Shown here in pieces: positions 11,862-64,000 of a DNA stretch of 64,000 nucleotides (positions are counted from its first letter, which is position 1; the number at the start of each line of letters is the position of its first letter). The translations under genes and the position numbers were made by a program. Origin of the DNA: Cymodocea nodosa (lineage: Eukaryota; Streptophyta; Magnoliopsida; Alismatales; Cymodoceaceae); NCBI GenBank assembly GCA_036874045.1, contig CM072335.1, positions 5,104,001 to 5,168,000 on the forward strand. The letters are read 5' to 3'. Under the pieces are notes generated by a model that saw only the letters and a list, made by a program, of their open reading frames with translations, was not told the DNA's origin and did not search any database.

Positions 11862-11928
11862 AGTTTTTCTGGTACGTTATTGGAGATCTAATCAGATATT
11901 CTAGTGTCGTGTTAGGAAAACACAAACA
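11862..11928 (+). other. Leader fragment with decayed primer-site repeats
   Basis: TCTGGTACGTTATTGGAGAT and TCTAGTGTCGTGTTAGG resemble the three primer-site-like repeats at 53,140-53,225. Leader sequence after this LTR means it is followed by the start of an element, later cut by a SIRE-like LTR piece. Confidence 0.5.
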
Positions 11929-18312: not shown

Positions 18313-18360
18313 CCTCTACTATTAAAACAAAACAGTACTCACAGTTGCTTAACTTCTCAA

Positions 18361-18378
18361 TCCTCGACAACAGTGCCA
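18361..18378 (-). promoter_or_regulatory. Primer binding site, copy M
   Basis: On the minus strand TGGCACTGTTGTCGAGGA, close to the complement of the tRNA-Asp 3' end (TGGCGCCGTTGCCGGGGA) used by Athila elements; 14 of 18 positions agree. Confidence 0.7.
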
Positions 18379-18389
18379 GAAAACTTATT

Positions 18390-20621: not shown

Positions 20622-21118
20622 CTTCATCCGAATTTCCAGTTGGTCTCTAATAAAACAATTTATATGGCATAATTGAATTCCAATCAAAAAATGTTAATGC
20701 TATTCTTGAATTTTTAGTGGGAACTTCAAAAGTACTTGGTTTTCCAATACTAAATTCTTCTCTAGCGATAGGATTTCTAATAAAAATATTCAGTAAAAGC
20801 ATATCATACCTTGATTTAGTTCTATGAATGATCAATCCCTACATCACTTCCCATAATATAATCTACTCCTCCTAATGCATTAGGTGGAATTCCAGAAGTT
20901 TCTTCTATATTCGTATATTCATAACTTACTATACTACGACAGAATAATTTCCATAAGAATCCATCATTGATGTTTGTTATCTTAGTAGCTTGCAATCTAT
21001 GGAAGTAACATTCAGTTATATAATCCCTAATCTACTTTGAGACACAACATAATCCGCACAAATCTTTAGTTGACAAATAACTTAATACTTCTCTCAATGC
21101 ATCCAATGGAAAATCCAT
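20622..21118 (-). pseudogene. Truncated F-box ORF, copy M
   Basis: Starts 'MDFPLDALREVLSYLSTKDL' followed by 'CGLCCVSK'. It is broken by stops and a frameshift, then resumes with 'IFIRNPIAREEFSIGKPSTF'. It ends at 'RPTGNSDE', where the sequence passes straight into the LTR through GAAG/TGTTTAG. The rest of the F-box, the 3' non-coding region and the PPT are missing. Homologous to 6825-7937, about residue 165 of 370. Confidence 0.8.
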
Positions 21119-21178
21119 AGTTTCCAATTGTTGTGATTCTGTATTCAACAACATAAAAATGAAAATAAACATTAATAA

Positions 21179-26660: not shown

Positions 26661-26768
26661 AATAATAAATAAAAACTATTTTTGTTATATACTCAAAGTT
26701 TTCTATGTTTTGTTGTTTTTCTATTTTTTTCTATAGTATACATATATTATAATAGCAATTATATTACT

Positions 26769-28074
26769 TCATTCTGCTTCCCTCCTATAGGAGGTATCAA
26801 TTTCATTTACATTTCTATTTAAAGGATTCAGTATTAATTGACTTGGTAATTTAAAGGATTCAATTATATATGCTTGAAGTCTAACTTCAATTGGTTCTTT
26901 TAGTCTAAGTATATTTCTATTTATGTTTTAATTTTGGACTATAGTATTTCCAAATACATGATCTAAATGATTCTTCAAGTTTTGAATTATCCTTTCTAAT
27001 TTATCTATTCTAACTCCTTGTTCAATTAATGCTTCTTAACTTTGATTTTTATCATTTATATTCTCTCCATCTTGGAAATTGTTATTTCTCCAAGATAAAT
27101 TTAGGTGATTTCTCCAATTAGAATTGTAAGAATTATCAAAATTTTCTCTTTGGTTTCTAACATAAATAGCATCTAAGTCATTCATACTTGCATTTTTTTC
27201 TACTAGCTTTTGATTTAATGATAACTCTTCTATTTTTCTTGTTAATTTACATAATTTGACTTCAAGCATAGTGGTAGAATCAAGTTCATGCATTCCTCTA
27301 GGTAGTATTTTCCTATCTAAAATAGCTTCAGCTAAATTTTCCTATTGTTCAATTCTTTTTGCAAAATTTTCTAAATATACCTATGCTTCTTCGCCATACA
27401 ATTTTAGAAACCCATTTTGACATGTAGATTCTAACAAAGATTTCATTGAAATATATATGCCTTCATAAATTATACCTATTAATTGTCTTTTACTTATTAC
27501 ATGATGTAAACATTGAATTAGTAAATCTTTAAATCTTTCAAAGTATTCCTAGATTGATTGTCCTTTTTTTGGCTACACATTAATATTTCTTTTTTCTTCT
27601 TAATTATTTGATGAGTAGGATAATATTTTTCCAAGAAAATAAAATAAAATTCAGTCCATGAAGACAGAGTATATAGTCATCTCTTAGTTGTATCTTTAAA
27701 GCAAAGAAAATATATTTAACTTTAATAGCATCTATACTCATATTAGGCATTCTCATCATTTGACAAACCTTATTAAATTCTCTTAGGAAGTAATAGGCGT
27801 CTTCTCTTTCTAATCTATGAAATTGTGGTAATTGACTAATATAATTAGATTTTAGTTCAAACCTATTTTTCTCAAAGGTTGGTAATCAGATACATGAAGG
27901 TTCATCTACCAATTTAGGATAAAAAATTTCTCCTAATGGTCTTTCTCCTAATATCTCAAAGGATTTTGTTAATTTTGATTTCAGATAATTTTGAAATTTG
28001 TTTTTGTGTTAAATAATCTTGTTTAAGTGTTCTAACCAATCTTTAGTACTAGGAGAATGAACCTAGGTGCTCAT
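26769..28074 (-). pseudogene. Gag capsid protein, copy M
   Basis: Starts 'MST' then TAG (TGG in copy E). Capsid pieces 'LPQFHRLEREDAYYFLREF', 'MPNMSIDAIKVKY', then frameshifts; the C-terminal 'NSNWRNHLNLSWR' part is open at 27,036-27,293. Ends 'NEIDTSYRREAE' at TGA 26,769. Somewhat diverged from W and E but in the same position, downstream of ORFX. No zinc knuckle. Confidence 0.85.
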
Positions 28075-28259
28075 AAACTTACAACATGAATTAAATTTAA
28101 AAAGTTAAAAATACATACCAATTGCAACACTCGTCTGATAATCCTGATAATACTTGAAGTGGTCGACGGTTGAAGTTGAACTAATTACTCCTCTTCAATC
28201 ACCAATGAGTGCCCTTCTTTCTTTACTATTGGTGTTCAGATTATGCAGCTTTGCTTTTT

Positions 28260-28267
28260 CTTTTATA
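28260..28267 (-). promoter_or_regulatory. TATA-like box before gag, copy M
   Basis: TATAAAAG on the minus strand in the context GCATTATAAAAG, the counterpart of GCATTATATATATAAAA in copies W and E, about 190 nt upstream of the gag ATG. Confidence 0.45.
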
Positions 28268-28424
28268 ATGCTCATCCATTCTGTAGATGCCTTCTCATTA
28301 CAAGAACATGCTTTGTGACGTGCATTATGGTTCCTATATTTATGGATATGTGCTCCAATCCTAAATTTAAATTTTTAGTAGCCACTAAGCACATGAAGTC
28401 ATGTTCATGGAGAAAAGAATAATC

Positions 28425-28690
28425 GTGTAGCTAACTCTATGAACTAACTTCATTAAGTTACAGATAACTCTGTAGAGCGACCTTGTTTACTATTCTTAAC
28501 TTAATGAACTAACCTTGTTGAGTTAATAGTTAACTCAATGGACTAGCCTAGGCTTCTAATTCATAACTTCACGAACTAACTTCGTTGAGTTACAAATAAC
28601 TTAATAGAGTGACATTATATTCCTATTACTTGCATCATAGAGTTACAATGTAACTCAATGAACTAACTTCATTGAGTTAACACTTAGGCA
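28425..28690 (-). promoter_or_regulatory. Palindrome cassette between ORFX and gag, copy M
   Basis: Several TTGAGTTA/TAACTCAA units, for example TTCATTGAGTTACATTGTAA and CGTTGAGTTA arms, matching the cassettes at 4779 and 62,565. Confidence 0.5.
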
Positions 28691-28942
28691 ATTTTCTACA
28701 AAGAAACCTACTTCTCATATTAACTTCTCTATTTCATTTCTACATATTATCAACATAAGAATAGTTAAATATATAATCATTCATGCAATTAAATTCACAT
28801 TGACAAAGAAAAATTACTTCATTTCAATTCATCCATAATTATCACATTTCACACAATATTATAATTTTCAAATAGGTATATATAAATATATTGTTTTGAT
28901 ATAAATTTTTAATTACATAAATTACAAACTTCTATACAAAAA

Positions 28943-31070
28943 TCAATCTTTTCTTTTTAATTCTTCTATTTCCTTATGGAGCTCTGACATTTGTTGTTCT
29001 AATTGGGCTATACGATCCAATGTTAATGAAGATTCTCCAAAAGGCCCTAAAATAATAGTAGTAGCAACAACAATAGCTTCCAAATTTCTATATTCTTTCA
29101 TAAAAATGGTTTTTGATCTCATCCTTTTGAATGTCCATTTCGTGAAATCAATTACTCCCACCATCAGAAGTGGAATCAAATCTCCATAAAATAATTTCTT
29201 CTTTGCTGCTCTAATCTTGGAGAGGAATACTTTACACCAATTTATTTGAATTCTATTTACAACTGCATACATGGCTCATTTGACAAATTGACTGAGTTCA
29301 ATATTGTGGTCTTGTCTTTGATAAACAGTCTTTACTAAAATGTTAGCCACCATGTGTGCCTTTCCTTTTAAGTACTTCCTTCTATTTAAAAGTGGCACAC
29401 TAGGATTGATGGTCAAACTCTACTTTATTTCTTGATCTGTCCATTCAGTAGCAATTGTATTTTCTTCCTTCATTCTTCAATCTAAATATACTATGAAGGA
29501 GTTCAAGTGTTAACTGTATGTTAGCATCCTCTACATTTAACAATAAAAATCCATTTTCCTCTCTCAAGTTTACATAGAAACTAGGCACTAAGTTTTCATA
29601 TATTGCATGCTCATTTGCCTTTGGAATTAATTCTAGTAGGCCTTGGAATTCAAATAATTTTTTCATACCTTCCATTCCTAACCAGTCAACTAGCCTACTA
29701 TATAAAATATTGTACCCCTTTATTTCTTGATGTTTTTCATATGCTTCCTGACTCCTAAAATGAACAATATTCATTTCTATTACTATAGAAGGCTTAGGAA
29801 ATTAGACTTCTTGTTCCATCAGGGTTTGCTCTTCTATTTGCTGTGTTTGCTACTGATGTAAGGAGCTATCCGGAGATTCCTATTCTAGTTCTTCTCCTAA
29901 TTGTAGCAGAGAGCTGGCAACACTCTCTACACTCTTTTCCTTCAAATTGTCTAGATATTTCTAAAGAGTTTCATCCTCTTCACTAGAATCTTCTAAATCC
30001 TCTTTTTCAGTCATTTCTTTTTCAGCTTCTTCTCCCTCTTCTTCTTCTTCCTCTTCTCCATAGTTAATGTTTTTCTATGTTAGTGGAAGACTTGGGTGTA
30101 GATTTGGGCACAGTAGTTTCTACCTATTTAGTTTTTTCTTCATCTTCTCCTTCTTGCTACTCTCCTTACTGCTGTAGTTCTTCCTCCTCATCTAATAACA
30201 AATCTACATAAATGGTCTCCTTTTGCCCTTTTGTAAAAACTATAAGCTCTTGTTTAATTGTTTGAGCCTTAAGAACTACTTCTTTTCCTTGTCTTCTTAT
30301 TAATTGTACCTATTCTTCCTCTTCTTCCGATGGTAGATCCACAAACATAAGTTCTTTATGCCCTTTTGTCACTGGTTTAGGCACTTCTTGCTTAATATTT
30401 ACAAGCCTTGAAGGACTAGCTTTAGCTTCTTTATGTGTAGTAACTAGTGTTAATCCAACCACTACATGATATTGTTCTACTTTAATGTCATACTGAGCTT
30501 TTAATTTATCTTTTGCCCATTTCTTCATCATGGAATCATATAAAATATGGGCTTTAGCAACAGCCATAGTTTCTTCTTCTCCTTGATCTTTACAAAGTTG
30601 AACTAATCTTATGAACTCTTTTGTTTCCTCTTCAAACTCAAGTCTACAAAGTTGAACATGTACCCTAGATATTTCTAGTTGTTGTGAGGGTCCAAGCTAT
30701 TCCTATTCTTATTATTGTTCTTCCCTATTCATATGTCTTTCAGCTACACAATATATATGATGCAAAAACCATGCTCTTGATTTACGTTGGATCAATTCTA
30801 TGGTAGTTTCATTGTTAGGCTTGATCCTACATTCTCTGTTAACTACAAATTTTGTTGCTACCCTCATTCTCATTTCAAATATACAAGGAACCTTAACATT
30901 CATTTTAGCTATTTTCTTAGTAAAACAAAGAATCTGTTCTTCTACCTCTAGTAGCTATTTCTCCCTAGTGGAGTTTCTAAGCGTTTTCCAGGAATGCCAC
31001 ACCTCTAACCGATGAAGAAAGTTTGTGATGTCAATTTCGTCCGACTAGTTCTATGCCATCTTCAAATGTT
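28943..31070 (-). pseudogene. ORFX, copy M (divergent)
   Basis: Reverse-strand ORFX in several frames: N-terminal 'MRVATKFVVNRECRIKPNNE', acidic middle 'MFVDLPSEEEEE', 'LFEFQGLLELIPKANEHAIY', 'SFYVNLREENG' (FYANL to FYVNL), and the C-terminal coiled coil 'RIAQLEQQMSELHKEIEEL'. The domain order equals that of copies W and E, but the residues differ enough to suggest another subfamily. Many stops and frameshifts in 29,800-30,300. Confidence 0.7.
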
Positions 31071-31084
31071 TGATTTCTCAAATT

Positions 31085-32098
31085 GCTAAGTCTCTAATTA
31101 TTTTTGCTAATAATGCCCCCAATCTGAAGTTTCATGGATTAAATAAGTCTTAAGTTTTGGCAAGCTATCGAGTTATTTCCCACACAAATTAAGCATAGCT
31201 TAACATTACTACTCTATTAAGTTACACATTAACTAAACGAACTAAATTGTGGACTTATCCTAGTACTCCGTTGAGTTACAAGTTTACTTGACGGAATAAG
31301 TTTGTGGACTTACCGTAACTTAACAAAGTAAGATCATTAAGTTAAGTGATAACTCAACAAACTTTACTTAGGAATTAAATCTAATAAAATATAATATATA
31401 TATATATATATATTTCTATTACAATTAAACCAAACGATTTTTAGTCTAACTAACTCTAGGTTATATAATTTTTTTTTAGATTCAATTGAACCACTATTGT
31501 GTTTTGGTCGAACTAATGATTAATATATATTTTTCCTTTTTTTCGGTTGAACCATTGGATTTTTAGTTAGACCAAAATGAAATATATATATATATAATTT
31601 TCAAAAATTTGATTAAACTAAGACCTGGTGAAACCGACACTACATAATTATATATTAAAAAATAAATTTTTTTCTTCTTTAAACTTTAGTTGAACCAAGA
31701 CAATGTTTTAGTCAAATCAAAAGAAATCTTCTTTTTCTTTTATATATCACAACTTCGATTGAATCAAGACTATGCTTCGGTCAAACCAAAATTAATATAA
31801 TATTAACACTTATATATTTTTTCTTCGATTAAATCAATATCACACTTCGATCTAATTGATACAATTTTTTTGTTTTATGACATTCGATGAAATCGATGTT
31901 GAACTTCGATCAAATCGATAATTATACTTAATTTTTCCTTCATCTTCGGTCAAACCATTGGATTTTCAATTTCATTAAAGAGGAATATATATTTATTATT
32001 ATATATATATATATATTAATATGCATTTCTTCTTACGTAATGGGCCTTAGGTAATCTTCCATTCTCACTTCTTTTATAATTTCAAATGCACTTTTTGG
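31085..32098 (-). other. Integrase tail and spacer, copy M
   Basis: On the minus strand: the end of integrase ('SKSAFEII'), an AT-rich spacer with repeated GGTTTGACCGAAGCATAGTC-type units, then the TTGAGTTA cassette at 31,190-31,370. It forms a fold-back with 33,150-34,350. Copy M ends at the junction near 32,099. Confidence 0.7.
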
Positions 32099-33130
32099 AA
32101 ATTAGTAGCTGATCACTTGTCAAAGTTACAAATAGAAAATTCTAAAATTTATATTAAGGATCATTTTCTTAATGAACAATTAATAATAATAGAAACAATG
32201 TCTTGGTATGTAAATATAGTTAATTATTTAATTACAAGATTAACACTTAAGGATTGGAATAGACAAGATAAAAAATTATTCTTTTCAAGAGTAAAATATT
32301 ACTATTGGAAAGACCCCTACTTATTTAGCTATATATTATTGGATGTGGATTATGTATCTAAGTAGATAGAAGCAATTCTTATAAAAACAAATGACAACAA
32401 AGTGGTAATACATTTTATCAAAACTAATATAATTACTAGATTTGGAGTACCTAAAATTATCATTAATGATAGAGGAACTCACTTTTGTAACATAAGTTTT
32501 GAAGCTTTATTGAAGAAATATGAAGTAAATCACAATATTGTAATTTCATATCACCCTCAAACAAGTGGACAAGTTGAAAGTGCAAATAAGCAAATTAAAC
32601 TAATTTTAGAAAAAATAGTTAACCCTACTAGGAAAAATTGGTCTACTAGATTAATAGATACATTTTGGACTTATAGAACTACTTACAAAACTAATCTAGG
32701 GATGTCAACTTTTAGAATAGTATATGGAAAGAATTGTCACTTATCTACTGAATTATAACATAAAGTTTATTAGACATTAAAGACTTTAAATATTAACATA
32801 GATAGAGTTGTTGAGCATAGAAAAATAGAACTAATAGAATTAGAAGAGTTTAGAAATGAAACTTATTCTAAAGCATTAGTAGAAAAATAAAAGATGAAGT
32901 TATGGCATGATAAAAAAATTATATCAAAAACCTTTGAAATAAGACAAGAGGTGTATCTTTACATGTCTAAACTTTATAACCATCTAAGGAAATTAAGATC
33001 TAAATGGACAAAATCATATATAGTTTGAAACATTTATTCCCATGGAGTAATTGAAATTGAAAATACTAAAAATCAGAATATATTTAAAGTTAATAGACAA
33101 AGACTTTGACCCATCCTTAAATTTTCAAAA
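32099..33130 (+). pseudogene. Integrase fragment lacking its zinc domain
   Basis: RNase H end and integrase. After 'KYYYWKDPYLF' it jumps directly to 'YILLDVDYVSK', so the HHCC zinc domain and first catalytic Asp region (about 360 bp) are deleted. The second Asp ('NDRGTHF') and Glu ('GQVESANKQ') remain. Stops at 32,363 and 32,756; the C-terminal part is degenerate to about 33,110. Confidence 0.85.
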
Positions 33131-50966: not shown

Positions 50967-53135
50967 TGTTTAGAATGAAAAAGTGCATAATATTAACGGT
51001 TAAATGATGGTTAATTGCATAATATTTAGCTTATCATATGAGAATCAAGCCATTATGTTATAATTGCACTGTTATATACTTTAATGAAAGAATCTGCTTA
51101 ATTTCGGGGAATTAATGTTAATTTAGTACATTTCTGAACTGTCGGTAAATTGCAGGCTGTGAAAGTCTTAAGTATCCGAATTTTCTGTTATTTCAGACAG
51201 TTGTGTTTAACGTACCGAACAGTTATGCTTAATGTACTGAAGAGTTATGTTTAAATTACCGAATAATTATGTTTTAAAATAATATTTTATTATTTCCTGA
51301 AGTACACGTGTCGAAACCATAATGCATGACTTAAGTGGACTTTCGGTGAGTTATCTCTAAGTATCCGAAATTGCAGTTGGGCATCGAATAGTTATATGTG
51401 TAACTCTCTGAAATCTCCTTTTATTATAAAACTACTGATGACACGTGTCATGTTCTGGAAGAATGACTTAAGTGGATTTTCGGTGAGTTATCTGTAACTA
51501 TTTGAAATGCATCTAGGCATCGGATAGTTAGACTTGTAACTCTCTGAAATATTTCTTTATTATAAAACTACTGATGACACGTGTCGTGATCTGGAAGATT
51601 GACTTAAGTTATATATCAGTGAGTTATCTGTAACTATCCAAAATGCATCTGAGCATCAGATAGTTAAGTCTGTAAGTATCTGAAATGCACTTGAGCATCG
51701 GATAGTTAAATTTATACACGTGTATTATAGTTAAATCAACAAAGCAAGTCCGTTGAGTTATCTGTAACTCCATGGACCATTTATTTTCTAATATACCATT
51801 GTAGCGGTTGCAGAAACAATACAGTTAGAAGAAAAAAACCATGATCGCATGTATCATGCAGGAATTCACTCGTCGAAGGAAGAAGAAATCATTATCGTTG
51901 ATATGAATGAAGAAAATCCAACCGATCATTCAAGTAGAAGCAATTACCACTGAAGAAATATAAAAGAAAAGAATAAAAAAAGCAACAGAGTGGTGGTTGA
52001 AGGGTGTGGCCAATGTGTGCAGAGGAGGATCACCGAGCTTTCTACAGGCAGCGTTGACAATTCTCTGAAGTACCACACCAACCATCTCCACCACCACCAT
52101 AATCACCAACCATCGGAGGTCTGTGAGGATACTTTCCTGATGTCAGGCCGATTCCGAGCCAAACACAGTGCCTGACAACCACTATGAGGAGTGATCGCGT
52201 CGTAGGAAGGAAAGCTATTTTCACCAAGCGCCGACTCATATCTCAGGAGATCGTAAAGCTTCTAGCCTTGGCTTCAGGTTGATGCCTATATGCTGAAGAG
52301 GAGATCATTTTGCAATTCTAAACTCACGATTCTATAGGGAGAGGAGACAGAATTATAAGTGGTTTAATTTTCAGTGGTGTAATCGCATTGCAGGTAGTGA
52401 CAGAAGTATTTACTGTCGACTGAGATTACTTTACATTTCACCTTTCGCCTATTTCCATGCTCATATCAAAATAAAAATATCAAAAACAACTTATTTGTGT
52501 TTATATTTTGTATTTGAGTGTTGTATTGTTTGTTTTGTATCATGATTAATGTTATCTTTGTTAGTGTTGTGATTGATTTATGTTTGTTTTAGTTTTACAG
52601 TTTACTGAAATTGATTCGTTCAAAAGACTTAAAGATTTTAATGGTTATTATTTGAATTATCTAAATGTTAGTATTGCCTAATGATAAATCCAATGTTTAC
52701 TAACATTAAAGAGCTTAATTGATGTTATTTACAATCTGCGAAACCGCCCAATGGTTGGTCGAATTCCTCTGTAAATAGCAGTATTAAATAGGAAAGGTAG
52801 GCTCGTGGAGTTAACTTAAGTCCACGAGTTTAGTCTGTTGAGTTAGCCATAATTCAACGAACTTAGTCTGTTGTCCGTTGAGTTAATTGTAACTCAACGG
52901 AGAGCTTATTGAATATAAATTTGATTGTTAAAAATGGAACAGTTCGCAATTCTTAAGCAATTCCTTGTGGGATCGACTTGTACTTGCACACTAATACAAT
53001 AGACACTATGTACTTGCAGTTAAAATACAAATTGGAATTAATATCTAATTTGTGTGAAAGGTTGTTTGTTTACTTCTAAAAAGGAATAGGCATAAAGATA
53101 AATTAACTAAGTAAAAATAGAAGTTAACAAATCCA
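50967..53135 (+). mobile_element. 5' LTR of copy E (Athila-like)
   Basis: About 2.17 kb, TGTTTAGAATG to near AACAAATCCA. TATA box TATAAAAG at 51,959. TAACTATCCGAA/CGGATAGTTA palindromes and ACACGTGTC boxes at 51,170-51,715; CCGTTGAGTTATCTGTAACT at about 51,750; a second array at 52,800-52,895. Left flank GTCAC would be the target duplication, with its partner beyond the window. No SIRE-like segment in U3. Confidence 0.88.
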
Positions 53136-53235
53136 AGTTTTTCTAGCACGTTGCTAGGTAACCAAACAAGTTTTCTGGTGTCGTGTTGGAGATCCAAGCA
53201 AGTTTTCTGGCACCGTTGCTAGGGAATTCATATAA
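53136..53235 (+). promoter_or_regulatory. Three primer-site-like repeats, copy E
   Basis: Units of about 33 bp: TTTTCTAGCACGTTGCTAGG, TTTTCTGGTGTCGTGTTGGA, TTTTCTGGCACCGTTGCTAG. The third (53,208-53,225, TGGCACCGTTGCTAGGGA) agrees at 15 of 18 positions with the tRNA-Asp primer site of Athila elements and is the likely functional one. Confidence 0.7.
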
Positions 53236-53277
53236 GCAACTGTTAGAGCTGTTTTGTTTTAATAGCCAGAGTGTTGT

Positions 53278-54980
53278 GTGTTTTCTTCTATAATTGAGAA
53301 TATGGCATATGCTTATGCTCAAATATTTCTGAAACCTGTAGTTAGCATATGTGAATTTTGCAATTTTGAAGGTCACAACATTTCTGATTGTTTGAAACTA
53401 AGACGTTTGCAGATGGTTAGATCCCATGAACAGCAAATGAATTATCCTCAATATAATAGAGCCGAGTATGAGAATCCTATAGTTTACCCAATTGATGGTC
53501 AGTATAGAATGTGTAATATGTTGAGAGACATGGAAGTTTGGGATAGGTATGACAGACTAGAGCGTAGTATAGAGCAAAACCTGGATAAACTACAATACTT
53601 TATGTGTTAGCAACAAAAAGTCAACCAATTAAACTATAAGGAAGCATATTCAGAACCTAAAATAGATATAATTTACGAAATTGAAAAAACCATAATGAAA
53701 ATTGATCAAAAATTGAATGCAATGAGATTAGATGATCTGGAAAGAAAACTAAAAGCATTGGACGAATATACAATGAAAATACAAGTTATGCAACAGGACA
53801 ATGGAAATTATGATGTTATAGATCTGCATAATTTGCAAAATACACAGCCAAAAGAAAATACTAATGTAAGAGAATTTAAAGAATGCACTTTAAAACTAAA
53901 AACAATTGAAGATCATAATCACGAAAATGATATACAAAAACATCATGAGAGTAACGAAAATCTAGAAGATGTATGTGTAACATTAAGATTTGGAACTAAT
54001 ACACCATCAAGAACTCAAAATGAAAATAATATGAAGGTGGATAAGAGTAAAAATCAAAATGATAATGAAAATGTAATAGCTGAAAATCTAGAAATCAATA
54101 AAGAACAATTTGAGTTTGCTAATGAGACTAAAAATGATTAAACAAATCAAACGAAAGAAAAAGAATCTTTTAAATCACAATCTTTAGCACCCTATCTTGA
54201 AAGATTACAACAAGCAATACCTGAAAAATAAGAAAAAATCAGAGAAATTTTTGAAAAAGTACAAGTTAACATTCCTTTGCTAGATCTATTGCAGAAAATG
54301 TCACCTTGTGCTAAATTTCTAAAGGATTGGTATACTAAGAAAAGAGAGCGAAAGGTTCTTAGAAAGGTCTTTTTAGCTGAGCAAAGTAGTTCCCTATTTT
54401 TGCCACAAATTCCTAAAAAGTTATCTAATCCTGGAATCCCTGTTATATCATGCACCATAGGAAATACTTAGGTGCAGGTATAAATGTTATGCCAAGTGCT
54501 ATATTTGCATCCTTAGGATTAGAAGGCTTAACTCCTACTAGTATAGTTATTCAATTAGCTGATAGAAGTATAAGATACCTTAGAGGAAAAATAGAGGATG
54601 TCTTAATTAAAATAAAAAATTTTATATATCCTATTGATATTGTAATTTTAGATTCCTAACAAATTAAGCATAAAAATAGTGATACATCTTTAATTTTGGG
54701 AAGACCATTTTTAGCAACATCAGGGGTTGTTATAAATTACAAAACTGGAGTAATGAAGTTAGCATATGGTAATGAGGATACTCAATTAAATATTTTCAAA
54801 CCAGAAAAGTTTGAGGAGTTAGAAATGTCCTTACATACCATAGACTTTTTAGAGGATGAAAGAGATATGTTAGATGATGTGATTCAAGAAGAATTAAATA
54901 GGCAAATCAATTCTAAAACTTTAGAGGAAAGTGAAAGCATAAATATAGGAGATCTACTAGATACCTACTAGAATTCAATC
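53278..54980 (+). pseudogene. Zinc knuckle, coiled coil and protease ORF, copy E
   Basis: First ORF after the LTR; Met at 53,278 or 53,302. It opens with an intact CCHC knuckle 'CEFCNFEGHNISDC' at about residue 30, then 'YDRLERSIEQNLDKLQ', a charged coiled coil and 'VCVTLRFGTN'. Protease pieces follow: 'LGAGINVMPSAIFASLGL' (catalytic Asp lost by a small deletion near 54,466) and 'QLADRSIRYLRGKIEDVL', then 'LILGRPFLATSGVV'. No capsid domain precedes the knuckle; capsid lies at 63,081. Stops at 53,608, 54,139 and 54,228. Confidence 0.87.
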
Positions 54981-56000
54981 AGGCTAGAGAGTATATATAG
55001 ACTATAGAAAGCTGAATGCTGTGACTAGGAAAGATCATTTTCCCTTACTTTTTATATATCAAATGCTGGAAAGATTAGCAGGGCAAGAATATTTTTGTTT
55101 CCTAGATGAGTATTCAGGTTATAATCAAATTCCAGTAGCATTAGAGGATCAAGAGAAAACAACTTTCACCTGTCCTAATGGAACTTATGCTTTTAAGAGA
55201 ATGTCATTCGAATTATGCAATACATCAGCTACCTTTCAAAGGTGTATGTAGGGCATATTTACTAGAATGATTGAAGATTTTTTAGAAATATTTATGGATG
55301 ATTTTACTGTATATGACAACTCATATGAAGTTTGTTTAAAAAATTTAGACCAAATATTAAAACGCTATGTGGGAAAAAATATGGTTTTAAATTGGGGAAA
55401 ATGTCACTTCATGGTTAAACAAGGAATAGTCTTAAGGCATGTTGTTTCTAAAAAAGGGTTGGAAGTAGATAAAGCTAAAATAGAAGTAATTTCTAATCTA
55501 CCAGAACCTAAATCAATAAAAGATATTAGATCATTTCTAGGACATGTTGGTTTTTATAGAAGATTTATTAAAGACTTTAGCAAAATAGCTAGACCTTTAA
55601 CTAATCTATTAAAAGATGTTCCATTTAACTTTAATAAAAATTGCAAGGAAGCATTTTTCAGACTTAAAACTAGCTTAATTTCAACTCCTATAATTCAAGC
55701 ACCTGATTGGAGCCATCCATTTGAATTAATGTGTGATGCATCTGATTTTGCTATAGGAGCAGTGTTGGGACAGAAGATAAAAAAATCTACTAGAGTGATT
55801 CATTATGCAAGCAAAACCTTAAATGATGCTCAAGTTAATTACACAACTACTGAAAAAGAACTATTAGCTGTTGTGTTTGCCTTAGAAAAGTTTAGATCAT
55901 ATCTGATTGAAGCTAAAGTAATAGTATACACGGATCATGCAGCTTTAAAACACCTAATAGTAAAAAAAGAGACTAAGCCTAGATTGATCCGATAGATATT
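54981..56000 (+). pseudogene. Reverse transcriptase and RNase H, copy E
   Basis: RT: 'DYRKLNAVTRKDHFPLLF', 'FLDEYSGYNQIP', 'TFTCPNGTYAFKRMSFELCN', active site 'FMDDF' (about 55,290), '[19 protein letters not shown]'. RNase H: '[16 protein letters not shown]', '[15 protein letters not shown]', 'YTDHAALKHL'. Stop TAG at 55,249 and the end near 55,995. About 480 bp of the RT lead-in present in copy M (16,135-16,595) is deleted at about 54,950-54,965. Confidence 0.92.
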
Positions 56001-59000
56001 ATTATTACAAGAATTTGATCTAGAAATTAAAGATAAAAAAGGTTGTGAGAATGTAATAGCAGATCATTTATTAAGATTAGAAATAGAAAAATCAAATATT
56101 GAAATTAAGGATAATTTTCCTGATGAACAATTAATGACCATCAATACAATACTTTGGTATGCAGACATAGTTAATTACTTAGTTACTAGTTTAACACTTA
56201 ATGATTGGAATAGATAGGATAAGAAATTATTTTTCTCAAGAGTAAAATATTACTATTAGGAAGACTCATACTTATTTAAGAAATGTCTTGATCTAGTTTT
56301 AAGGAGGTGTATTCCAAAAACTGAATATCAGAGCATATTGTCTTTCTATCATGACCAAGCTTGTGGAGGGCATTTTTGTTAGAACCCGAGTATTTTGATA
56401 ATGCAAAACCTATGTGAGGAAACATATTGTATTTCACAGTTAAGTCTGTACTGCATTAGTTTAGAAGGCTGTTAGAACAAATTCCAAGCAGACGAATAGA
56501 TTGAGAAGGTTCCAGATGATAATACTTTCAAGTTATAGTAAAATCAGACAATTACAGGTTCAAGCATCCAAAGAATAAAACAACAGCAAGACTATCAAAT
56601 AGTTAGAAGGATAACTATCTGAATTTTACAAAGCCTTCGGAGAGTTTTTATATCAGACAGTTAAGTTGGTTGAATGATCGGAGAGTTATGGAGTTAACTA
56701 TCCGAAAGAAAAAGGAAAATTGGAAAGTTAGAAAGGCTAACTATCCGAAACTTAAGTCATTCAATAAATCACGTGCAAAAATATAAAACGAAAGCTTAAG
56801 GACTTGTCGGAGAGTTAGATAACTATCCGAGTTTTCTTTTCGGAGAATTAGATAACTATTCGAGTTTTTCGGTAAGTTACAAGCATAACTTTCTAGAACC
56901 TAAGTCATTTTATTACGCACGTGCAAAATGGAGATGCCGTCAATTGAAAGCTTAAAAGGGAAAATCAGAGAGTTAGTTAACTATCCGAAATTTCAAAGAG
57001 AGTTTCAGTAAGTTATAGTTTAACTATTCGAAACTTAAATTATTGAAATTGCCACGTGCAGAATTCCAGAAAGAAGATCATTTAAGTTTTCGGAGAGCTA
57101 GAAAGATAATTATCCGAAATCTTAAGAGAATTTCGGTGAGTTATGGTTTAACTATCCGAAATTTAAGTTAGTGAATTTCCCACGTGCAGAATTCCAAATA
57201 GATGTTCAAATGGGTTTTTCGGAGAGTTAGAAAGATAACTATCCGAAATCTCAAGAGAATTTCGGTGAGTTATGGCTTAACTATCTGAAACTTAAGTTAT
57301 GTTTTTATGCACATGCAGTTTTGAAGGGACAGCTGTTAGAGACTTAAATGAAAGTTCGATAAGTTATAGTAGTTAACTATCCGAAAATCAGGAGTTCTTT
57401 CAGTAAGTTAAATACAAGACTCCGAACACTTGACTTTACACATGAGCAACTTAAAATCCTCACGTGACTCAAAGAATAGAACATGAGTTATGAATCGGCA
57501 AGTTATGGATGCTTTTCGATAAGTTATCTTTATAACCATCCGAAAGCCTGAGATTTTCGGAAGGTTACTTACTGAACATCAGACAGAACAGTAACTTACC
57601 ATATTTAGGTTTGATTATTTACCAAGTACAACATAATACATCCGTTGAAAGAAAAATATGATCGTTATACATTTGGTATAAATATGAGGAGTTTAAGAGA
57701 AGAGAACACAAATAACAGATATACTACATACAGTGAGCTACACTCCAATTTCAAAATACACTCAAGTCTGCCAACAGTAAAACATACTCTAAAGACATAT
57801 TGCATAAAAAGCTTTGTGTGCCAAAACTCTGATTGAAAGACTCAAGCTGTTGGTTTGTGGCTTCACCTTGAAAGCTACATTAAGTTGTTAGTTTGAGTTT
57901 TGACCTGAAAACTCTAGAAGTTGGTTTACTGAAGTTTATACCTGAAAACTTCTATGTTGTTGGTTCTTGCTTTGACCTAAAAGCAAGTGTGTAAGTGTTG
58001 AAACACTTAGTGAAGCCCAAGTGAATATTGGGGGTGGACTAGCCAAGTTGGTGAACCACCTAAAACTTGTTGTGTATTATCTTTCTTTACTACTTTGCAT
58101 TCGATTAATTTCATCTCTTTTCACTACTATTTGAATCATTTGTTTCAACATTTAAAAGAACATAAAAAGTTACACACTTTCACCATTCACCCCCCCCTCT
58201 GGTGAGTCTACCAATCCTAACAATTTTGGCTCAGGGAAAACTGCTGCAAAAATTCTGTAATGTGGGTTTTATTGGCCAACACTATTCAAAGATGCACATA
58301 AGTATTGCTTAAATTGTTTACGATATCAACAAATAGGAAGAATATCAAAGAAGAATATGATGCCTCTTAATCCTATTGTTGATGTTGAAATCTTTGATGT
58401 GTGAGGAATAGATTTTATGGGTCTATTTCCTATGTCTAATCAATTTAATTACATATTGTTGGGGGTGGATTATGTATCTAAATGGATAGAAGTTATTCCT
58501 ACAAAAACTAATGACAACAAAGTGGTAATACAATTTATAAGAACCAATATATTTGCTAGATTTGGAATACCTAAAGCTATTATCAGTTATAAAGGAACTC
58601 ATTTCTGTAATAGAAGTTTTGAAGCCTTAATGAAAAAATATGGAGTAAACCAGAAAATTGCAACATCATATCATCCGCAAACAAGTGAACAAGTAGAAAG
58701 TGCTAACAAACAAATTAAGTTAATCTTCGAAAAAGTAGTAAATCCTACTAGAATAGATTGGGCTTATAGAACTGCTTATAAGACAAACTTAGGTATGTCA
58801 CCTTTTAGGCTAGTATATGGAAAAAGTTGTCATTTACTAGTTGAAATAGAACATAAAGCTTATTGAGCATTAAAAACTCTAAACACTAATTTAAATCAAG
58901 TTGCTAAAAATAGGAAAATGTAATTAATTGAATTAGAAGAATTTAGAAATGAAGCTTATTCGAAGATTGTAAGAGAAAAGGAGAAAATGAAATTCTAGCA

Positions 59001-59280
59001 TGATAGGAAAATTATTCCAAAAAGCTTTAAAATAAGACAAAAAGTATATCTTTACATGGCTAGATTCCATAACCATCTAGGAAAATTAAGATCTAGTTGG
59101 GCAGGACCTTACATAGTTCGAAATATTTATCCTTATGGTGCTATTGAGATTGAAAATCCTAAAAATCAGAATATCTTTAAAGTAAATGAACAAAGACTTA
59201 GACCTATTCTGAAAATACCAAAAAGCTCCTTTAGAATTATAAAAGAAGTCAGAGTAGAGGACTACTCGAGCTTTACTTAG
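56001..59280 (+). pseudogene. Integrase, copy E, split by a solo LTR
   Basis: The RNase H/integrase linker runs to the zinc domain start 'HDQACGGHF' (56,350-56,376), then a 1.85-kb LTR insertion, then 'GSGKTAAKIL', 'FYWPTLFKDAHKYCLNCL', '[10 protein letters not shown]', second Asp position changed ('ISYKGTHF' instead of SDRGTHF), Glu in 'EQVESANKQ', and the C-terminal 'WAGPYIVRNIYPYGAIEIE' ending at TAG 59,278. No chromodomain. Confidence 0.9.
56377..58222 (+). mobile_element. SIRE/Maximus-type solo LTR inside integrase
   Basis: 1,846 bp, TGTTAGAACC to CAATCCTAACA, flanked by the perfect duplication ATTTT (56,372-56,376 and 58,223-58,227). Ends with 'TTCACCCCCCCCTCTGGTGA' like other SIRE-type LTRs. 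56,600-57,560 is an array of CGGAGAGTTAGATAACTATC-type palindromes with CACGTGCA boxes. No interior, so it formed by LTR-LTR recombination. Confidence 0.88.
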
Positions 59281-59582
59281 TAAGAAATCAGTTTTTATTT
59301 TATTTTCATATAAATAAATAAAAATCGTAGTAATTTTAAAAAATTATAAAATATAAAAAATCGTTGTGGTTCAACTGGCTGGATCCATCGGTATGACCAG
59401 AACATAAAAAAATCTATATTAATTTTTAGTAAAAAAAAAAAAAACTTTTGATTTTACCGAAACATAGTATCGATTCAACTGAAAAAAGTCGGTCTGACCG
59501 AAACATAGCATCAGTTAGACTGGTAAAAACCGAAAAAAACACTATTATCTTAAGTATTTCTTTTATATATATCTATTTGTAT
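59281..59582 (+). repeat. Spacer with CCGAAACATAGTATC repeats, copy E
   Basis: Counterpart of 1640-1800: ACCGAAACATAGTATCGATT and GACCGAAACATAGCATCAGT units. Non-coding. Confidence 0.6.
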
Positions 59583-59745
59583 GGGAGGTCCGTTGAGTTA
59601 CGCTTAACTCAACGAACTTACTCCTTTGAGTCTTAAGTTAGTCAACGAGCTTATTCTATTGAGTTAACTGTAACTCAACGGAATACTGTAGTTAAGTCCA
59701 TAGACTTAGTCCGTGGAGTTATCCGTGGTTCCACGGATGAGAAAG
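59583..59745 (+). promoter_or_regulatory. Palindrome cassette between pol and ORFX, copy E
   Basis: CGTTGAGTTACGCTTAACTC then AACG (10-bp arms, tiny loop), ATTGAGTTAACTGTAACTCA, and CCGTGGAGTTATCCGTGGTT then CCACGG. Followed by a telo-box-like TAGGGTTTT at about 59,812. Confidence 0.55.
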
Positions 59746-59899
59746 CGAGAGTTTTGTTTGGGAAATGACTTGATTACCTGCCTAAACTTAGGGCTTATTT
59801 AGACTAAAACTTAGGGTTTTGGGGGCATTATCCAGTAGATCAGTTAGAACTTAGAATAGTAGAGATCAGAGCGATTCCGTGCCGTTGTGTAATTCCACG

Positions 59900-62115
59900 A
59901 TGAGGAAGATGACGCTCAAGTTCTGGGAAGATACTGTTGACACATCAGAATTTTTGAAAGAGTTAGAGGAATGGCACACGCGACAGAAAATCAGGAATAC
60001 AACAAGAGAAAAAGAGATACAGAAGGTAGAATTCGAACTTTTCAACTTAAGAAGATTTTTAGTAGATTTGGGTATACAAATACCCCAAATAGTGGAAACA
60101 AGAATCAGAGTAGCAATAGAAATTGTTGTAAGTAAAGAGAGAAAAATCAAGCCAAACAACGAAGTAGCCCTAGAGCTAATCTAGTGCAAGGCCAAATTAT
60201 GGTTCAAAAAGTGCATTGTTGGTCGTGCAATGGGTGCAATAAGGCGGTAGCAACAAGCAGAGGAAGAACAAGATGAGCCAACTGCTGAAAGACCTATTCT
60301 TGAGGAACAACAGCTAGGACCTTTAGTTCCACCATTCAGGCTGTTGGAACGAGTAGCAATGTTGGGGCCTTCAACTGAAGAGGAATTAAGAGAATTCCAA
60401 GGACTGGTTCAAGTTGGGAAAAACCAAGGAGAACCAGAAGATGTGGCAGTAGCTAAAGCACACTTGGTATTTGATGCACTTTGCAAGAAGAGGGCTGTAG
60501 AAAAATTGAAGTTGAACAGCATCAAAGAACCACTATCAGATTTGCTGCAAGAGGAGAAGCTGAAGCTAGTCCTTCGAGACCAGCAAATATTGAAAAAATT
60601 AAACAGGAAGAGCTAGTACCTATGGCTCAAAGGCGTGCAGAGCCTTTGTTTATGAATTTAATCTCACAAGTAGAAGAGGAAGACCAGACACAATTAATCA
60701 AACAAATGAAAGGAAAAGAGATAGTGTCTGAACGTCAAAAGGAGATTAAATCTGAAGTACCAACATCAACAAGGCCTATAGAGTCAATTTTGGTGAACCT
60801 GCTATCCGATTCTAAGGAGGAGTAGGAGCAGTAGTAGAAAAAGCAAAGAGAAGAAGAAAAACATGTTGAAATTAGTTTGCAGCCTGTACAAGAAGAAGAA
60901 ATAGAAATTAGGGTAGAAGCTACTTTGTCCATGACTCCATCCCAATCTGCCAAAGAATCAGAAAGAACAGTGACAATGCAGATTGGTAGTCAGGAGGAAG
61001 AAGAAAGAACAGATAATGAACAAGAAACTAAACAAAGCCATATGGAAAGAAATGACTTTGTAGATTCCACTAAAGAGTAAGAAACTCTTTAGCAATTTAT
61101 GGAAAGAATTCAAAACAGAGTGGAGAGTTCTGCCGGCTCACCACCATAGACAAAAGCAGAAGCAAATGTTCAAGAATCTGTAGAACATTTTCAGCAAGTT
61201 CGAGTTCAGCCTATGGAAGAGGAAGATCAAGAACAAACCCCTCTAGAACAATAAAGTCACATTCCTGATCCGACTAAAGCAACATTTCTGAATGAAGTAC
61301 ACTTTTGGAGTCAGGAAGCTTATAATAAATACCAAGAGATTAGGGGTTATGATATCATATACAGTAGACTAGTAAATTGGGACGGAATGCAAGAAATTAA
61401 GGAATTATTTGAGTTCCAGGGTCTACTACAATTTATTTCTCAACATAAAGAGCATGTAATATATGAAAATCTAGTGCCCTACTTTTATGCTAATTTAAGA
61501 GAAGAAGAAGGACAATTAATTTCCAACGTGAAGGAAACTAATGTACAAATAACACTAGAGCTTCTCCACAACATTGTTGGATTGAAGAATGAAGGAAAAA
61601 AAATTTTGGAAAGCACAACTATCGTTGAATGGACAGAGCAGGAAATCAAAGACAGTTTGGCTATCAATCTTGGTGTGCCATTATTAAATAGACTGAAGCA
61701 TTTAAATGGTAAAGCACATATGATAGCTAATATTTTGATTAAAAATGTCTACCAACGATAAGGCCATGACATTGAACTAAGTCAATTTGTTAAGTGGGCC
61801 ACTTATGTAGTTGTGAATAGAATTCAAATTAATTGGTGTTAAGTCTTCCTATCCAAAATGAAGTCTGCAAAGAAGAAATTATTTTATGGAGATTTGATAC
61901 CTATATTGATGGTAGACTGTATTGATTTCACGAAATGGACATCCAAAAGGATAAGATCAAGAACCATTATAGTGAAAGAATACAGAAATTATGCTACAAC
62001 TGAAGTATTTGTACCTTCTGATGGCATTATTAGAGTTGTAGAGAGGATAAACCAATTAGAGCAGCAATTAGAAAAACTCCAGAAGGAAGTAGATGAACTT
62101 AGGAATAGAGGCTAA
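59900..62115 (+). pseudogene. ORFX, copy E
   Basis: About 738 codons with stops. Start 'MRKMTLKFWEDTVDTSEFL'. N-terminal helical region 'VSKERKIKPNNEVALELI', acidic middle, 'LFEFQGLLQFISQHKEHVIY', 'YFYANLREEEG', 'GKAHMIANILIKNVYQR', and C-terminal coiled coil 'RINQLEQQLEKLQKEVDEL'. No membrane segment. Stops include TAG at 60,182 (CAA in copy W), TAA 61,078 and TAG 61,090 (CAA and CAG in copy W). It sits between two palindrome cassettes. Function unknown; conservation in three copies suggests it serves the element. Confidence 0.75.
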
Positions 62116-62564
62116 TTATATAGTTTGTCTACTTATACTTGTATATATTTGTATGAAAAATATCTGATTTGATTGTACTATAATTGATTCATATGAATGA
62201 ATATATGTTTTTCGGATATATTTTTCATGCGTGTTTAGAATGATGAAATGAATGAACTATACTGAATGTTATATAATTTGTGGGACATTATGCATGAATG
62301 TTTAAAAGGATTTACAGTTTGCTGAATGATAGGATTAAATAATAGATGCTTGAAAATATCTGCATGCTGCAAGGTAAAATGTAAATTCTACATAACATGA
62401 AATGAACTGCAAGTTAAATATTTATATAATGTTTAGATTTAAAGGAATTTTGATTAAAATGCTGCATAAATGGCATGTATTTAACTTTATTTCAGTTAGC
62501 AGAGTATAGGAGAAAAAAAAAAACATAGAGGTACTTACAAGGAGTAAACTTAGAGATTACTAAG
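62116..62564 (+). other. AT-rich spacer after ORFX, copy E
   Basis: Non-coding counterpart of 4342-4778. Confidence 0.6.
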
Positions 62565-62750
62565 TGTTAACTCAACAAAGTAAGTTTGTTGAGTTAAACT
62601 TAACTCCACGAGGTCAGTAATATAATATAAGGTCACTCCGTTGAGTTATCTGTAACTCAACGAAGTTAGTCCGTGGAGTTAACAACAGTAACCGACATTG
62701 TTCCGTTGAGTTATTTGTAACTCAACGAGGTTAGTTCATGGATTAAGCAG
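62565..62750 (+). promoter_or_regulatory. Palindrome cassette between ORFX and gag, copy E
   Basis: CGTTGAGTTATCTGTAACTC then AACG at about 62,640, and similar units at 62,580 and 62,703. Best preserved example of the 10-bp stem. Confidence 0.6.
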
Positions 62751-62856
62751 AACAGTTATTCTTTTAACCACGAACAAAACTTCGTCAACTTAGCGGTTAC
62801 CAAAATTTGAAATTAGTAGTGGTACACGTACCCATAAAAATAGGAACCACATTGCA

Positions 62857-62881
62857 CGTTGCAAGACACGTTCTTGCAACG
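62857..62881 (+). promoter_or_regulatory. Perfect hairpin in gag leader, copy E
   Basis: CGTTGCAAGA, loop CACGT, TCTTGCAACG; arms identical to 5069-5093 while the loop differs by one base. Confidence 0.55.
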
Positions 62882-62908
62882 AGATTTATTTACTTTATGG
62901 ATGTGCAT

Positions 62909-62921
62909 TATATATATAAAA
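62909..62921 (+). promoter_or_regulatory. TATA-like box before gag, copy E
   Basis: TATATATATAAAA about 160 nt upstream of the gag ATG at 63,081, with the GGTACACGTACC box at about 62,821. Same arrangement as copy W. Confidence 0.45.
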
Positions 62922-63080
62922 TAGAATGTTATTTATGAGTTACTAGCACTTTTAAAAGAAAGGAGAATGCATTGGGGGAACTGGAAGGAGAAGCAGTTGA
63001 TTCGACTTCATCCATCAACAAATATTTACTGAATGGAAAGCTTCAGACTGGTATGCAATTAATCGTCTGCTATTTTATTT

Positions 63081-64000
63081 ATGAACACATGGACTCGTTC
63101 TCCTAGCACTAAACGATTAGTAAGAACACCTACCCAGGAATATTCAACACAGAGGCGTATTGAAACATTTTCTAAATTGGACTTTAATGAAATCCTTTGG
63201 CGTGTAGCTAACCTTTTTTTAAAAGAGAACGTAGAGATGGCTACCCTAGTAGAAAAACCATTAGAAGAAATTCTGTATCTTGAATTAGTTGATGAACCTT
63301 CATGTATTCGATTGCCAAACTTTGAGGAAGATAGGTTTGAACTAAAATCTAATTATATTAGTCAATTGCCACATTTTCATGGATTAGAAAGAGAGGATGC
63401 CTATTATTTCCTTAGAGAATTTAATGAAGTTTGTCAAATGATGAAAATGTCGAACATGAGTATAGATGCTATTAAACTTAAATATATCCCTTTTGATTTA
63501 AAAGACACAGCTAAGAGATGGTTATATACTCTATCGCCTGATTCAATTTCTGCATGAACTGAATTTTGCTCTGTTTTTCTGGAAAAATATTATCCAACAC
63601 ATCAAACGATTAAAAAGAAAAAAGAAATATTAATGTGTAGCCAAAAATAGGGTGAATCATTTTGGAAATATTTTGAAAGATTTAAAGATTTACTAACTCA
63701 ATGTCCACATCATGCAATGAGTAAAACACAATTAATAAGTATAATTTATGAAGGCATAGATGTTTCAATGAAATCTTTATTAGAATCTACTTGTCAAAAT
63801 GGATTTCTAAAACTATGTAGTGAAGAAGCATGGGCATATTTAGAAAACTTTGCAAAAAGAATTGCATAGTGGGAAAACTCGGCTGAAGTTATTACAGATA
63901 AAAAAATATTGCCAAGAGGAATGCATGAAATAGATTCAAGTACCATGCTTGAAGTGAAATTAACTGAATTAACAAAGAAAATAGAAGAGTTATCATTAAA
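63081..64000 (+). pseudogene. Gag capsid protein, copy E, runs off the window
   Basis: ATG 63,081 ('MNTWTRSPSTKRL'). Retrotrans_gag region: 'LPHFHGLEREDAYYFLREF', 'KRWLYTLSPDSIS', 'FWKYFERFKDLLTQC'. Stops TGA 63,555, TAG 63,648 and TAG 63,867 correspond to TGG, CAA and CAG in copy W, so neither copy is the ancestor of the other's stops. The F-box and 3' LTR are expected to the right of the window. Confidence 0.9.

What the first reader, a model, noticed from the sequence alone, without database searches (positions are those of the whole stretch)
50967..64000. Athila-like family with gag split and capsid moved behind pol
Copy E reads LTR, tRNA-Asp-like primer site, zinc knuckle, PR, RT, RH, IN, ORFX, then gag capsid. 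Copy W (1-6635) and copy M (32,098-26,769, minus) show the same IN-ORFX-gag order, and copies E and M both show LTR followed directly by the knuckle with no capsid. Known Athila elements put gag first. The upstream half keeps the CCHC knuckle; the downstream half keeps capsid and 'YNPNWRNHPN' but has no knuckle. I infer duplication or relocation of gag with complementary loss.
Basis: partly seen in the sequence, partly recalled or inferred. Interest (0 to 1): 0.88.

Follow-up and report, generated by a model that had tools for sequence, protein, structure and literature searches.

The report
Plant jumping gene with gag last
A very abundant plant retrotransposon carries its capsid gene after, not before, its enzyme genes, and still moved as one unit; two related families in the same plant show the same reversed order.

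Summary
The window lies in a 374.6 Mb genome, evidently a plant's, with thousands of loose candidate places. The order is LTR, primer site, zinc knuckle, PR, RT, RH, IN, ORFX, gag capsid, F-box, purine tract, LTR. Gag follows IN in 9 of 11 copies examined. None of the 10 copies with their own 5' LTR has capsid between it and the knuckle or PR. Six of 7 two-LTR copies have exact 5-bp target duplications, so the rearranged element moves as one unit. The moved gag is under purifying selection (dN/dS 0.30; 55 of 55 pairs). Two other Athila-type families here (RT-RH 66-73% identical to this one) are also pol-first, with a gag ORF after IN. They keep a knuckle in both Pol and Gag; the window family lost the Gag one. 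That supports duplication with complementary loss. A plant-type relative (L001) and 87 of 120 listed database relatives have capsid before RT. My searches found no report of this order. How Gag is expressed and Pol packaged is inferred.

The parts
50967..53200 (+). 5' LTR of copy E (TGTTTAG...AAGCA)
   Evidence: 85% identical to the W LTR; starts with the same TGTTTAG as the other copies whose 5' LTR start was read
53208..53225 (+). primer binding site of copy E, just after the LTR
   Evidence: sequence read; similar sites follow the 5' LTR in other copies; tRNA-Asp assignment is recalled, not tested
53302..53607 (+). N-terminal zinc-knuckle part of Pol, no capsid before it
   Evidence: CX2CX4HX4C in the translation; Pfam zf-CCHC_2 below cutoff (E 0.038); weak alignment to canonical gag residues 356-376
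53611..55248 (+). linker with TLRSG-like motif, protease and start of RT (broken frames)
   Evidence: tblastn to L001 residues 668-958 and 1163 onward
55252..55992 (+). RT end and RNase H of copy E
   Evidence: Pfam RT_RNaseH 1e-32
56377..58222 (.). later insertion inside IN of copy E, TG...CA with ATTTT on both sides, solo-LTR-like
   Evidence: read; copy W aligns on both sides of it
58223..59277 (+). rest of IN of copy E
   Evidence: tblastn to L001 residues 1638-1977, E 5e-111
59855..62112 (+). ORFX of copy E (broken), weak Transposase_32 similarity
   Evidence: Pfam PF20167 E 0.0018, below cutoff
63081..64000 (+). gag of copy E (starts MNTWTR..), capsid; continues in L012
   Evidence: tblastn to L001 residues 108-344; start; continuation
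1..1570 (+). RH and IN of copy W
   Evidence: tblastn to L001 residues 1471-1978, E 3e-152; Pfam Integrase_H2C2
2135..4342 (+). ORFX of copy W, by alignment with E (approximate ends)
   Evidence: blastn 492-6211 vs 58223-64000
5292..6635 (+). gag of copy W (broken frame): capsid and YNPNWRNHPN, knuckle missing
   Evidence: Pfam Retrotrans_gag 1.7e-19; alignment gap over the knuckle; start
6825..7934 (+). F-box gene of copy W, in two open pieces (6795-7673, 7677-7934)
   Evidence: Pfam F-box 1e-9; 387-aa open frame in L015
9673..9683 (+). polypurine tract of copy W
   Evidence: read; a like tract precedes the 3' LTR in the other eight copies whose 3' LTR start was printed
9684..11928 (+). 3' LTR of copy W
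   Evidence: 94.1% identical to its 5' LTR in L013
11929..11933 (.). target duplication ATATG of copy W (other half before the 5' LTR in L013)
26767..32103 (-). copy M: IN tail, ORFX, gag
20622..21144 (-). F-box remnant of copy M beyond the nested element
   Evidence: 65.8% to W 6810-7305; read
18387..20621 (-). LTR shared by copies M (3') and S (5'); lower end approximate
14245..18378 (-). copy S: primer site, knuckle, PR, RT, RH, part of IN

Best explanation
This is a mobile Athila-type LTR retrotransposon whose gene order has been permuted to pol first, gag last. SHOWN: one unit, 16.6-17.3 kb in the four fullest copies measured, bounded by matching LTRs and 5-bp target duplications, holds knuckle-PR-RT-RH-IN at the 5' side and ORFX-gag-F-box at the 3' side. 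The order recurs in independent copies and in two other families of the genome. The downstream gag starts like other plant gags, and in this family it lacks only its knuckle. INFERRED: gag was duplicated downstream of IN in an ancestor, and the 5' capsid was then deleted, leaving the knuckle on Pol. A likely route is recombination with a gag-only element of the kind described in Arabidopsis Athila. Genomic RNA is translated into Pol, while Gag is made from its own shorter RNA, by splicing or an internal start. Because Pol is no longer fused to Gag, its own knuckle carries it into the particle by binding the element RNA. The F-box gene is a captured host gene, kept for some use to the element.
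For: Order and unit: marker scan of 11 copies; 5-bp duplications in W, L018/19, L020/21, L024/25, L028/29, L030/31, that is 6 of 7 tested; LTR pair identities 94.1-96.9% in those six; spans. Coding constraint: dN<dS in 55 of 55 pairs for capsid and 43 of 45 for F-box. Clade: families B and C. Of the first 53 of 104 listed B gag places, 36 have IN 519-574 bp upstream, 0 have IN downstream and 17 have no IN of the typed list within 10 kb. Of 109 IN places listed, 13 lie in open frames of 1488-1491 aa with no stop inside, too short to hold a gag like that of the 2004-aa canonical frame; the longest listed is 1536 aa. Canonical comparison: L001, with capsid, knuckle, NPGW, PR, RT, RH, IN in one frame and no ORFX or F-box marker; 87 of 120 listed relatives with capsid before RT. 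Ancestral gag start: a W-x-R..RLV-like pattern shared with 28 of 122 listed gag proteins. Recombination precedent: passages of PMC2410132.
Against: No RNA or protein data, so separate Gag expression and Pol packaging by its knuckle are untested. Each class A copy read has stops or frame breaks. The 5' knuckle's homology to the gag knuckle is weak by sequence. One origin of the order is not resolved: A and B group (91/97), C floats, and one origin appears in 75% of 200 bootstrap trees. E lacks a matching duplication, and so does the one class B copy checked. In family C no start codon stands directly before the W-x-R gag start. In L022 a capsid-F-box block lies upstream of RT, but an LTR fragment separates them, so I read it as a neighbour copy. 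The genome-wide search for canonical-order copies did not complete.
Confidence: 0.8

Rival explanations
1. The ORFX-gag-F-box block is a separate or nested element, and the order is an accident of stacking.
For: Nested and tandem copies are common here: M and S share an LTR, the Q element sits in M, and L022 has a neighbour's block upstream.
Against: No LTR match lies between IN and gag in 9 of 9 copies that have both. In six of them one target duplication flanks the whole set. IN end to capsid marker is 3966-4214 bp in five copies.
Confidence: 0.03
2. The rearranged element is non-autonomous and borrows Gag from canonical partners; the downstream gag is a passenger.
For: Gag-only and pol-less Athila elements exist in Arabidopsis (passages of PMC2410132). 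The class A copies read are all broken.
Against: The downstream capsid is under purifying selection. Family B has copies in which both pol and gag frames are open. Among 124 gag places listed no open frame exceeds 677 aa, so no open canonical gag-pol was seen there.
Confidence: 0.12
3. Circular permutation: an LTR came to lie between capsid and knuckle in a tandem or circular intermediate, so gag moved without any duplication.
For: Tandem copies with a shared LTR exist in the window (M and S). The 3' block begins with a gag start.
Against: Families B and C have a knuckle on both sides, and the NPGW motif that follows the knuckle in canonical gag lies in the 3' block. A single cut cannot give that.
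Confidence: 0.1
4. Assembly or annotation artefact.
For: Repeats of 17 kb are hard to assemble.
Against: The junctions recur at similar spacing in independent copies with different flanks, and three families share the order.
Confidence: 0.02

Closest known systems
Athila / Calypso / Diaspora lineage of plant Ty3-gypsy elements (OTA superclade)
   Same: RT, RH, IN and capsid related; knuckle, PR motif; extra sequence after pol in most members
   Different: Diaspora, and the Athila and Calypso consensus elements, have one ORF for gag, protease, RT and integrase (passages of PMC1142308). Here gag is a separate ORF after IN and Pol starts at a knuckle.
L001/L002, an Athila-type plant-like element found in two bacterial assemblies
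   Same: 60-71% identity to this family over RT-RH and RH-IN; same domains
   Different: One 2004-aa frame with capsid first and the knuckle inside gag; no ORFX or F-box marker found
[quoted passage not shown]
   Same: Position between IN and 3' LTR; ORFX has weak Transposase_32 similarity
   Different: In the part I read (first of three, PMC7264820) such ORFs are env-like or of unknown origin; none is described there as the element's own gag
Foamy viruses (recalled, not tested)
   Same: Works like: Pol made apart from Gag and packaged through RNA binding, if the inference holds
   Different: Foamy viruses keep gag before pol; no membership claimed

Membership tests
LTR retrotransposon | Two matching LTRs (TG..CA), primer site after the 5' LTR, purine tract before the 3' LTR | tested here: met
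LTR retrotransposon | Target site duplication | tested here: met
   5 bp in 6 of 7 two-LTR class A copies; E fails; the one class B copy checked fails
Athila lineage | RT-RH and IN related to known Athila-type elements | tested here: met
   that the relatives are Athila-type is partly recalled
Athila lineage | Domain order gag-PR-RT-RH-IN (order used for classification in PMC6317226, passages) | tested here: not met
   Gag after IN in 9 of 11 copies; capsid before knuckle or PR in 0 of 10 copies with their own 5' LTR
Athila lineage | Gag and Pol in one ORF (passages of PMC1142308) | tested here: not met
   Separate gag ORF; B pol frames of 1488-1491 aa
Athila lineage | tRNA-Asp primer site (recalled as typical) | tested here: inconclusive
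   Site sequence read; complement to a tRNA gene not tested
Athila lineage | No additional RNase H (aRH marks Tat, PMC6317226 passages) | not tested
   Not scanned specifically
Nested composite of two elements | LTR boundary between IN and gag | tested here: not met
   No LTR match between IN and gag in 9 of 9 copies with both
Env-like plant retroelement | Downstream ORF encodes an envelope-like membrane protein | tested here: inconclusive
   ORFX has only weak Transposase_32 similarity; membrane segments not tested

The most novel reading that the evidence does not exclude
A clade of plant Ty3/Gypsy elements has abandoned the gag-first plan shared by retroviruses and LTR retrotransposons. Pol is translated first with its own RNA-binding knuckle and packages itself on the element RNA. 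Gag is a separate 3' gene on its own RNA. The window family has gone further: its Gag gave up RNA binding by knuckle altogether and it added a captured F-box gene, perhaps to have a host defence protein degraded.
Probability: 0.4. Interest if true: 0.92.

Novelty: new variant of a known kind. Interest (0 to 1): 0.82.

Why it matters
Gag before Pol, with Pol riding into the particle fused to Gag, is treated as the ground plan of LTR retroelements. A numerous element that reversed it and kept moving would show that the plan is not obligatory. It makes two questions directly testable: how Gag excess over Pol is achieved without a gag-first RNA, and how Pol is packaged without a Gag-Pol fusion. 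It also warns that classifiers that require gag-first order may drop or mislabel such elements: in one survey 159 Ty3/gypsy elements had no reliably identified GAG domain (PMC6317226, passages). Whether any of those are pol-first is unknown.

Tried and rejected
Considered and rejected: nested or composite structure, simple circular permutation and an assembly artefact (see rivals).

Led nowhere: IMG/VR scans with RT-RH and capsid found no relative. The first protein-database search, with the W capsid, gave only two fragments. AlphaFold models of the F-box protein and of ORFX had mean pLDDT 35 and were not searched further. Target duplications for more class B copies and for L014 could not be located. 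Never answered (not completed): canonical knuckle-to-PR places, the IN-ORFX junction, the gag-F-box junction, the ORFX-capsid junction and F-box places. A genome-wide test for canonical-order Athila copies is therefore missing.

Counting notes. The 11 class A copies are E, W and the nine other best-scoring RT-RH places fetched, not a random sample. Of the 11, L022/23 shows no 5' LTR of its own and L024/25 and L026/27 have lost the knuckle. In one search the KN row named M is copy S read twice; the capsid and gag-tail rows of L022 come from the neighbour block upstream and its F-box row may mix two F-boxes; dS for ORFX1 could not be computed. In one search some LTR ends were cut a few tens of bases short or long, and the L024 LTR is truncated (915 columns compared). 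In one search 61 of the 109 IN places were typed (22 of 33 gag places matched); one search used 98 of 109 IN places and the first 53 of 104 gag places. One search used 30 of the 120 listed relatives, chosen by hand for spread; 860 relatives passed the threshold. The spacings were typed in.

Literature: ten searches, of which eight bore on gene order or Athila structure and two on F-box genes; two searches returned no paper. Of the hits I saw listings and abstract beginnings, passages of five papers (PMC6317226, PMC1142308, PMC2410132, PMC11963269, and none further), and the first of three parts of PMC7264820. None of what I saw reports gag after pol in an intact LTR element. Most subscription papers are not held. 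I recall a study of reshuffled Elbe elements in beet that I did not see.
Full report
The finding. I treated the order, the mobility and the interpretation as separate questions.

Anatomy in the window. Self-alignment shows several copies of one family. Copy E has an LTR from 50967, a primer site at 53208 and a Pol start at 53302 whose first recognisable motif is a CX2CX4HX4C knuckle. PR, RT, RH, IN, ORFX and capsid follow to the window end. IN of E is interrupted by a later insertion (56377-58222) with ATTTT on both sides. Copy W runs from RH to IN, ORFX, gag, an F-box gene, a purine tract and the 3' LTR at 9684. Copy M has only the tail of IN, then ORFX and gag, a nested element, an F-box remnant and an LTR. 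That LTR is at the same time the 5' LTR of copy S, so M and S are in tandem.

A canonical yardstick. A scan of genome contigs found two nearly identical plant-like elements in bacterial assemblies (L001, L002; 99.7% alike). L001 has one 2004-aa frame with capsid (residues 170-262), knuckle (363), NPGW motif (403), TLRSG (567), PR, RT, RH and IN, and no ORFX or F-box marker. Against it, the downstream gag of W aligns from residue 86 to 432 with a gap over the knuckle. The 5' knuckle aligns at 356-376, weakly: 1 of 300 shuffles reaches the score with a 45-residue query, 20 of 300 with the longer one.

It is a genome-wide family. The window is part of a 374.6 Mb genome. First-look candidates number 2570 for RT-RH, 3691 for the knuckle and 3509 for capsid; these are loose counts, and 40 places were scored in each. 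I read E, W and nine other loci. Gag follows IN on the same strand in 9 of 11. L022/23 has lost it, and L026/27 carries an insertion that puts gag beyond the stretch. In 0 of the 10 copies with their own 5' LTR does capsid lie between it and the knuckle, or PR where the knuckle is lost (two copies). In L022 a capsid-F-box block lies upstream of RT, but it is followed by an LTR fragment and is best read as a neighbour copy; L028 has a capsid on the opposite strand outside its 5' LTR. F-box follows gag in 8 of the 9; L016/17 is rearranged there.

It moves as a unit. Six of 7 two-LTR copies have identical 5-bp duplications: W ATATG, L018/19 GTAAG, L020/21 GTTAT, L024/25 CTAAC, L028/29 ACGCA, L030/31 TTATG. 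Copy E is the exception: GTCAC before, AGAGA after its first downstream LTR. LTR pairs of the six are 94.1-96.9% identical, of E 91.9%, with transitions in excess. No LTR match lies between IN and gag in the 9 copies with both. The spacing IN end to capsid marker is 3966-4214 bp in five copies. Four full copies span 16.6-17.3 kb.

The parts were used. Between sequences of this family, dN is below dS for capsid in 55 of 55 pairs (ratio of means 0.30), for the gag tail in 51 of 55 (0.42), for F-box in 43 of 45 (0.38), for ORFX2 in 43 of 45 (0.22), and for RT-RH in 62 of 66 (0.38). These values include decay after insertion, so they likely understate constraint. Each class A copy read has stops or frame breaks.

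Two more families share the order. Searching the genome with the canonical gag gave 124 places in three kinds, none in an open frame over 677 aa. L032 (family B) has RT-RH-IN and then an open 454-aa gag with its own knuckle. L033 (family C) has a knuckle at the start of Pol, PR to IN, then an open 463-aa gag frame with a second knuckle; no start codon stands directly before its W-x-R start. A young family B copy, L034/L035, has LTRs 99.78% identical over 1807 bp. Its Pol frame starts 150 bp after the LTR with the knuckle near its start, and its gag, whose own knuckle is imperfect, follows IN. It shows no target duplication; its 5' LTR may be shortened. Among the first 53 listed family B gag places, 36 have IN 519-574 bp upstream, none have IN downstream within 10 kb, and 17 have no IN in the typed list. 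Of 109 IN places listed, 13 lie in open frames of 1488-1491 aa with no stop inside. Neither ORFX nor F-box markers were found in the B and C stretches, so these two look like additions of the window family. RT-RH identity between A, B, C and L001 is 64-74%.

How far it spreads. Of 120 listed relatives of family B Pol in the protein database (860 passed), 87 carry capsid before RT, 32 have no capsid match (several start inside gag, so they may be shortened gene models), and one Malus baccata model has a capsid fragment at its very end. In an RT-RH tree of 41 rows A and B group with 91/97 support, C is unplaced, and one origin of the order appears in 75% of 200 bootstrap trees. The gag starts of E, L032/L035 and L033 carry a W-x-R pattern; 28 of 122 listed gag proteins, many from Vitis, have it within their first 160 residues. 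The moved piece therefore looks like the whole ancestral gag.

Origin and mechanism. Canonical order is capsid, knuckle, NPGW, linker, TLRSG, PR. Families B and C have capsid-knuckle-NPGW-linker after IN and knuckle-linker-PR before RT. A single cut cannot give a knuckle on both sides, so I favour duplication of gag downstream and deletion of the 5' capsid; the window family then lost the Gag knuckle. Gag-only Athila elements and recombination between Athila families are described in Arabidopsis (passages of PMC2410132), which offers a donor. With gag last, Gag must come from another RNA or start than Pol, and Pol has no Gag fusion to carry it into particles. A knuckle at the start of Pol in all three families is what one expects if it packages Pol on the element RNA. 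These steps are inference.

A possible punctuation signal. An inverted repeat, GTTGAGTTA-N-TAACTCMAC, gives 18 hits at 11 places in the window (both strands counted) against 0 in 100 shuffles. In the nine other loci similar hairpins cluster in the gaps: after IN, before gag, between gag and F-box, and in the LTR. In family C the gap before gag holds sequences that look like splice sites by eye. None of this is tested.

Verdict. The order is real, moved as a unit, and is shared by three families. It is a new variant of a known kind. I found no report of it in my searches of the held library, which lacks most subscription papers.

Noticed in passing
C1:19684001-19694000 (L032) and C11:6010001-6025000 (L033, L036): Two further Athila-type families with gag after IN, each with a knuckle in the downstream gag; L033 also has one at the start of Pol.
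   Followed up: yes
window 4852, 6732, 10491, 11564, 23737, 26629, 52877, 59592, 62588, 62640, 62705: An inverted repeat GTTGAGTTA..TAACTCMAC marks gene gaps and the LTR of the family; 18 hits at 11 places against 0 in 100 shuffles. Function unknown.
   Followed up: partly
window 6825-7934; L015 3277-4437: F-box gene (387-aa open frame in L015, FBA_1 match below cutoff) between gag and 3' LTR in 8 of 9 copies with gag after IN, under purifying selection. Possible captured host gene.
   Followed up: partly
window 21179-26472: Nested element in copy M with 94% identical repeats at its two sides; between them lies the rear part of the family's own LTR and a 93-aa ORF, a chimera.
   Followed up: no
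window 20640-20610 (minus strand): In copy M the F-box frame breaks off at GAAG directly onto the LTR start; the purine tract of W also ends in GAAG, which suggests a deletion by microhomology.
   Followed up: no
L001, L002: Nearly identical plant-like retrotransposon contigs sit in the assemblies of Solirubrobacter sp. CPCC 204708 and Geminicoccus harenae CPCC 101083, most likely contamination.
   Followed up: no
window 32103-34338: Inverted copies of the IN end and a 690-bp direct repeat at 94%.
   Followed up: no
L033 7279-10000: Downstream of the family C copy an LTR is followed by the leader, a cut Pol start and what looks like another LTR start, like a deletion derivative in tandem.
   Followed up: no
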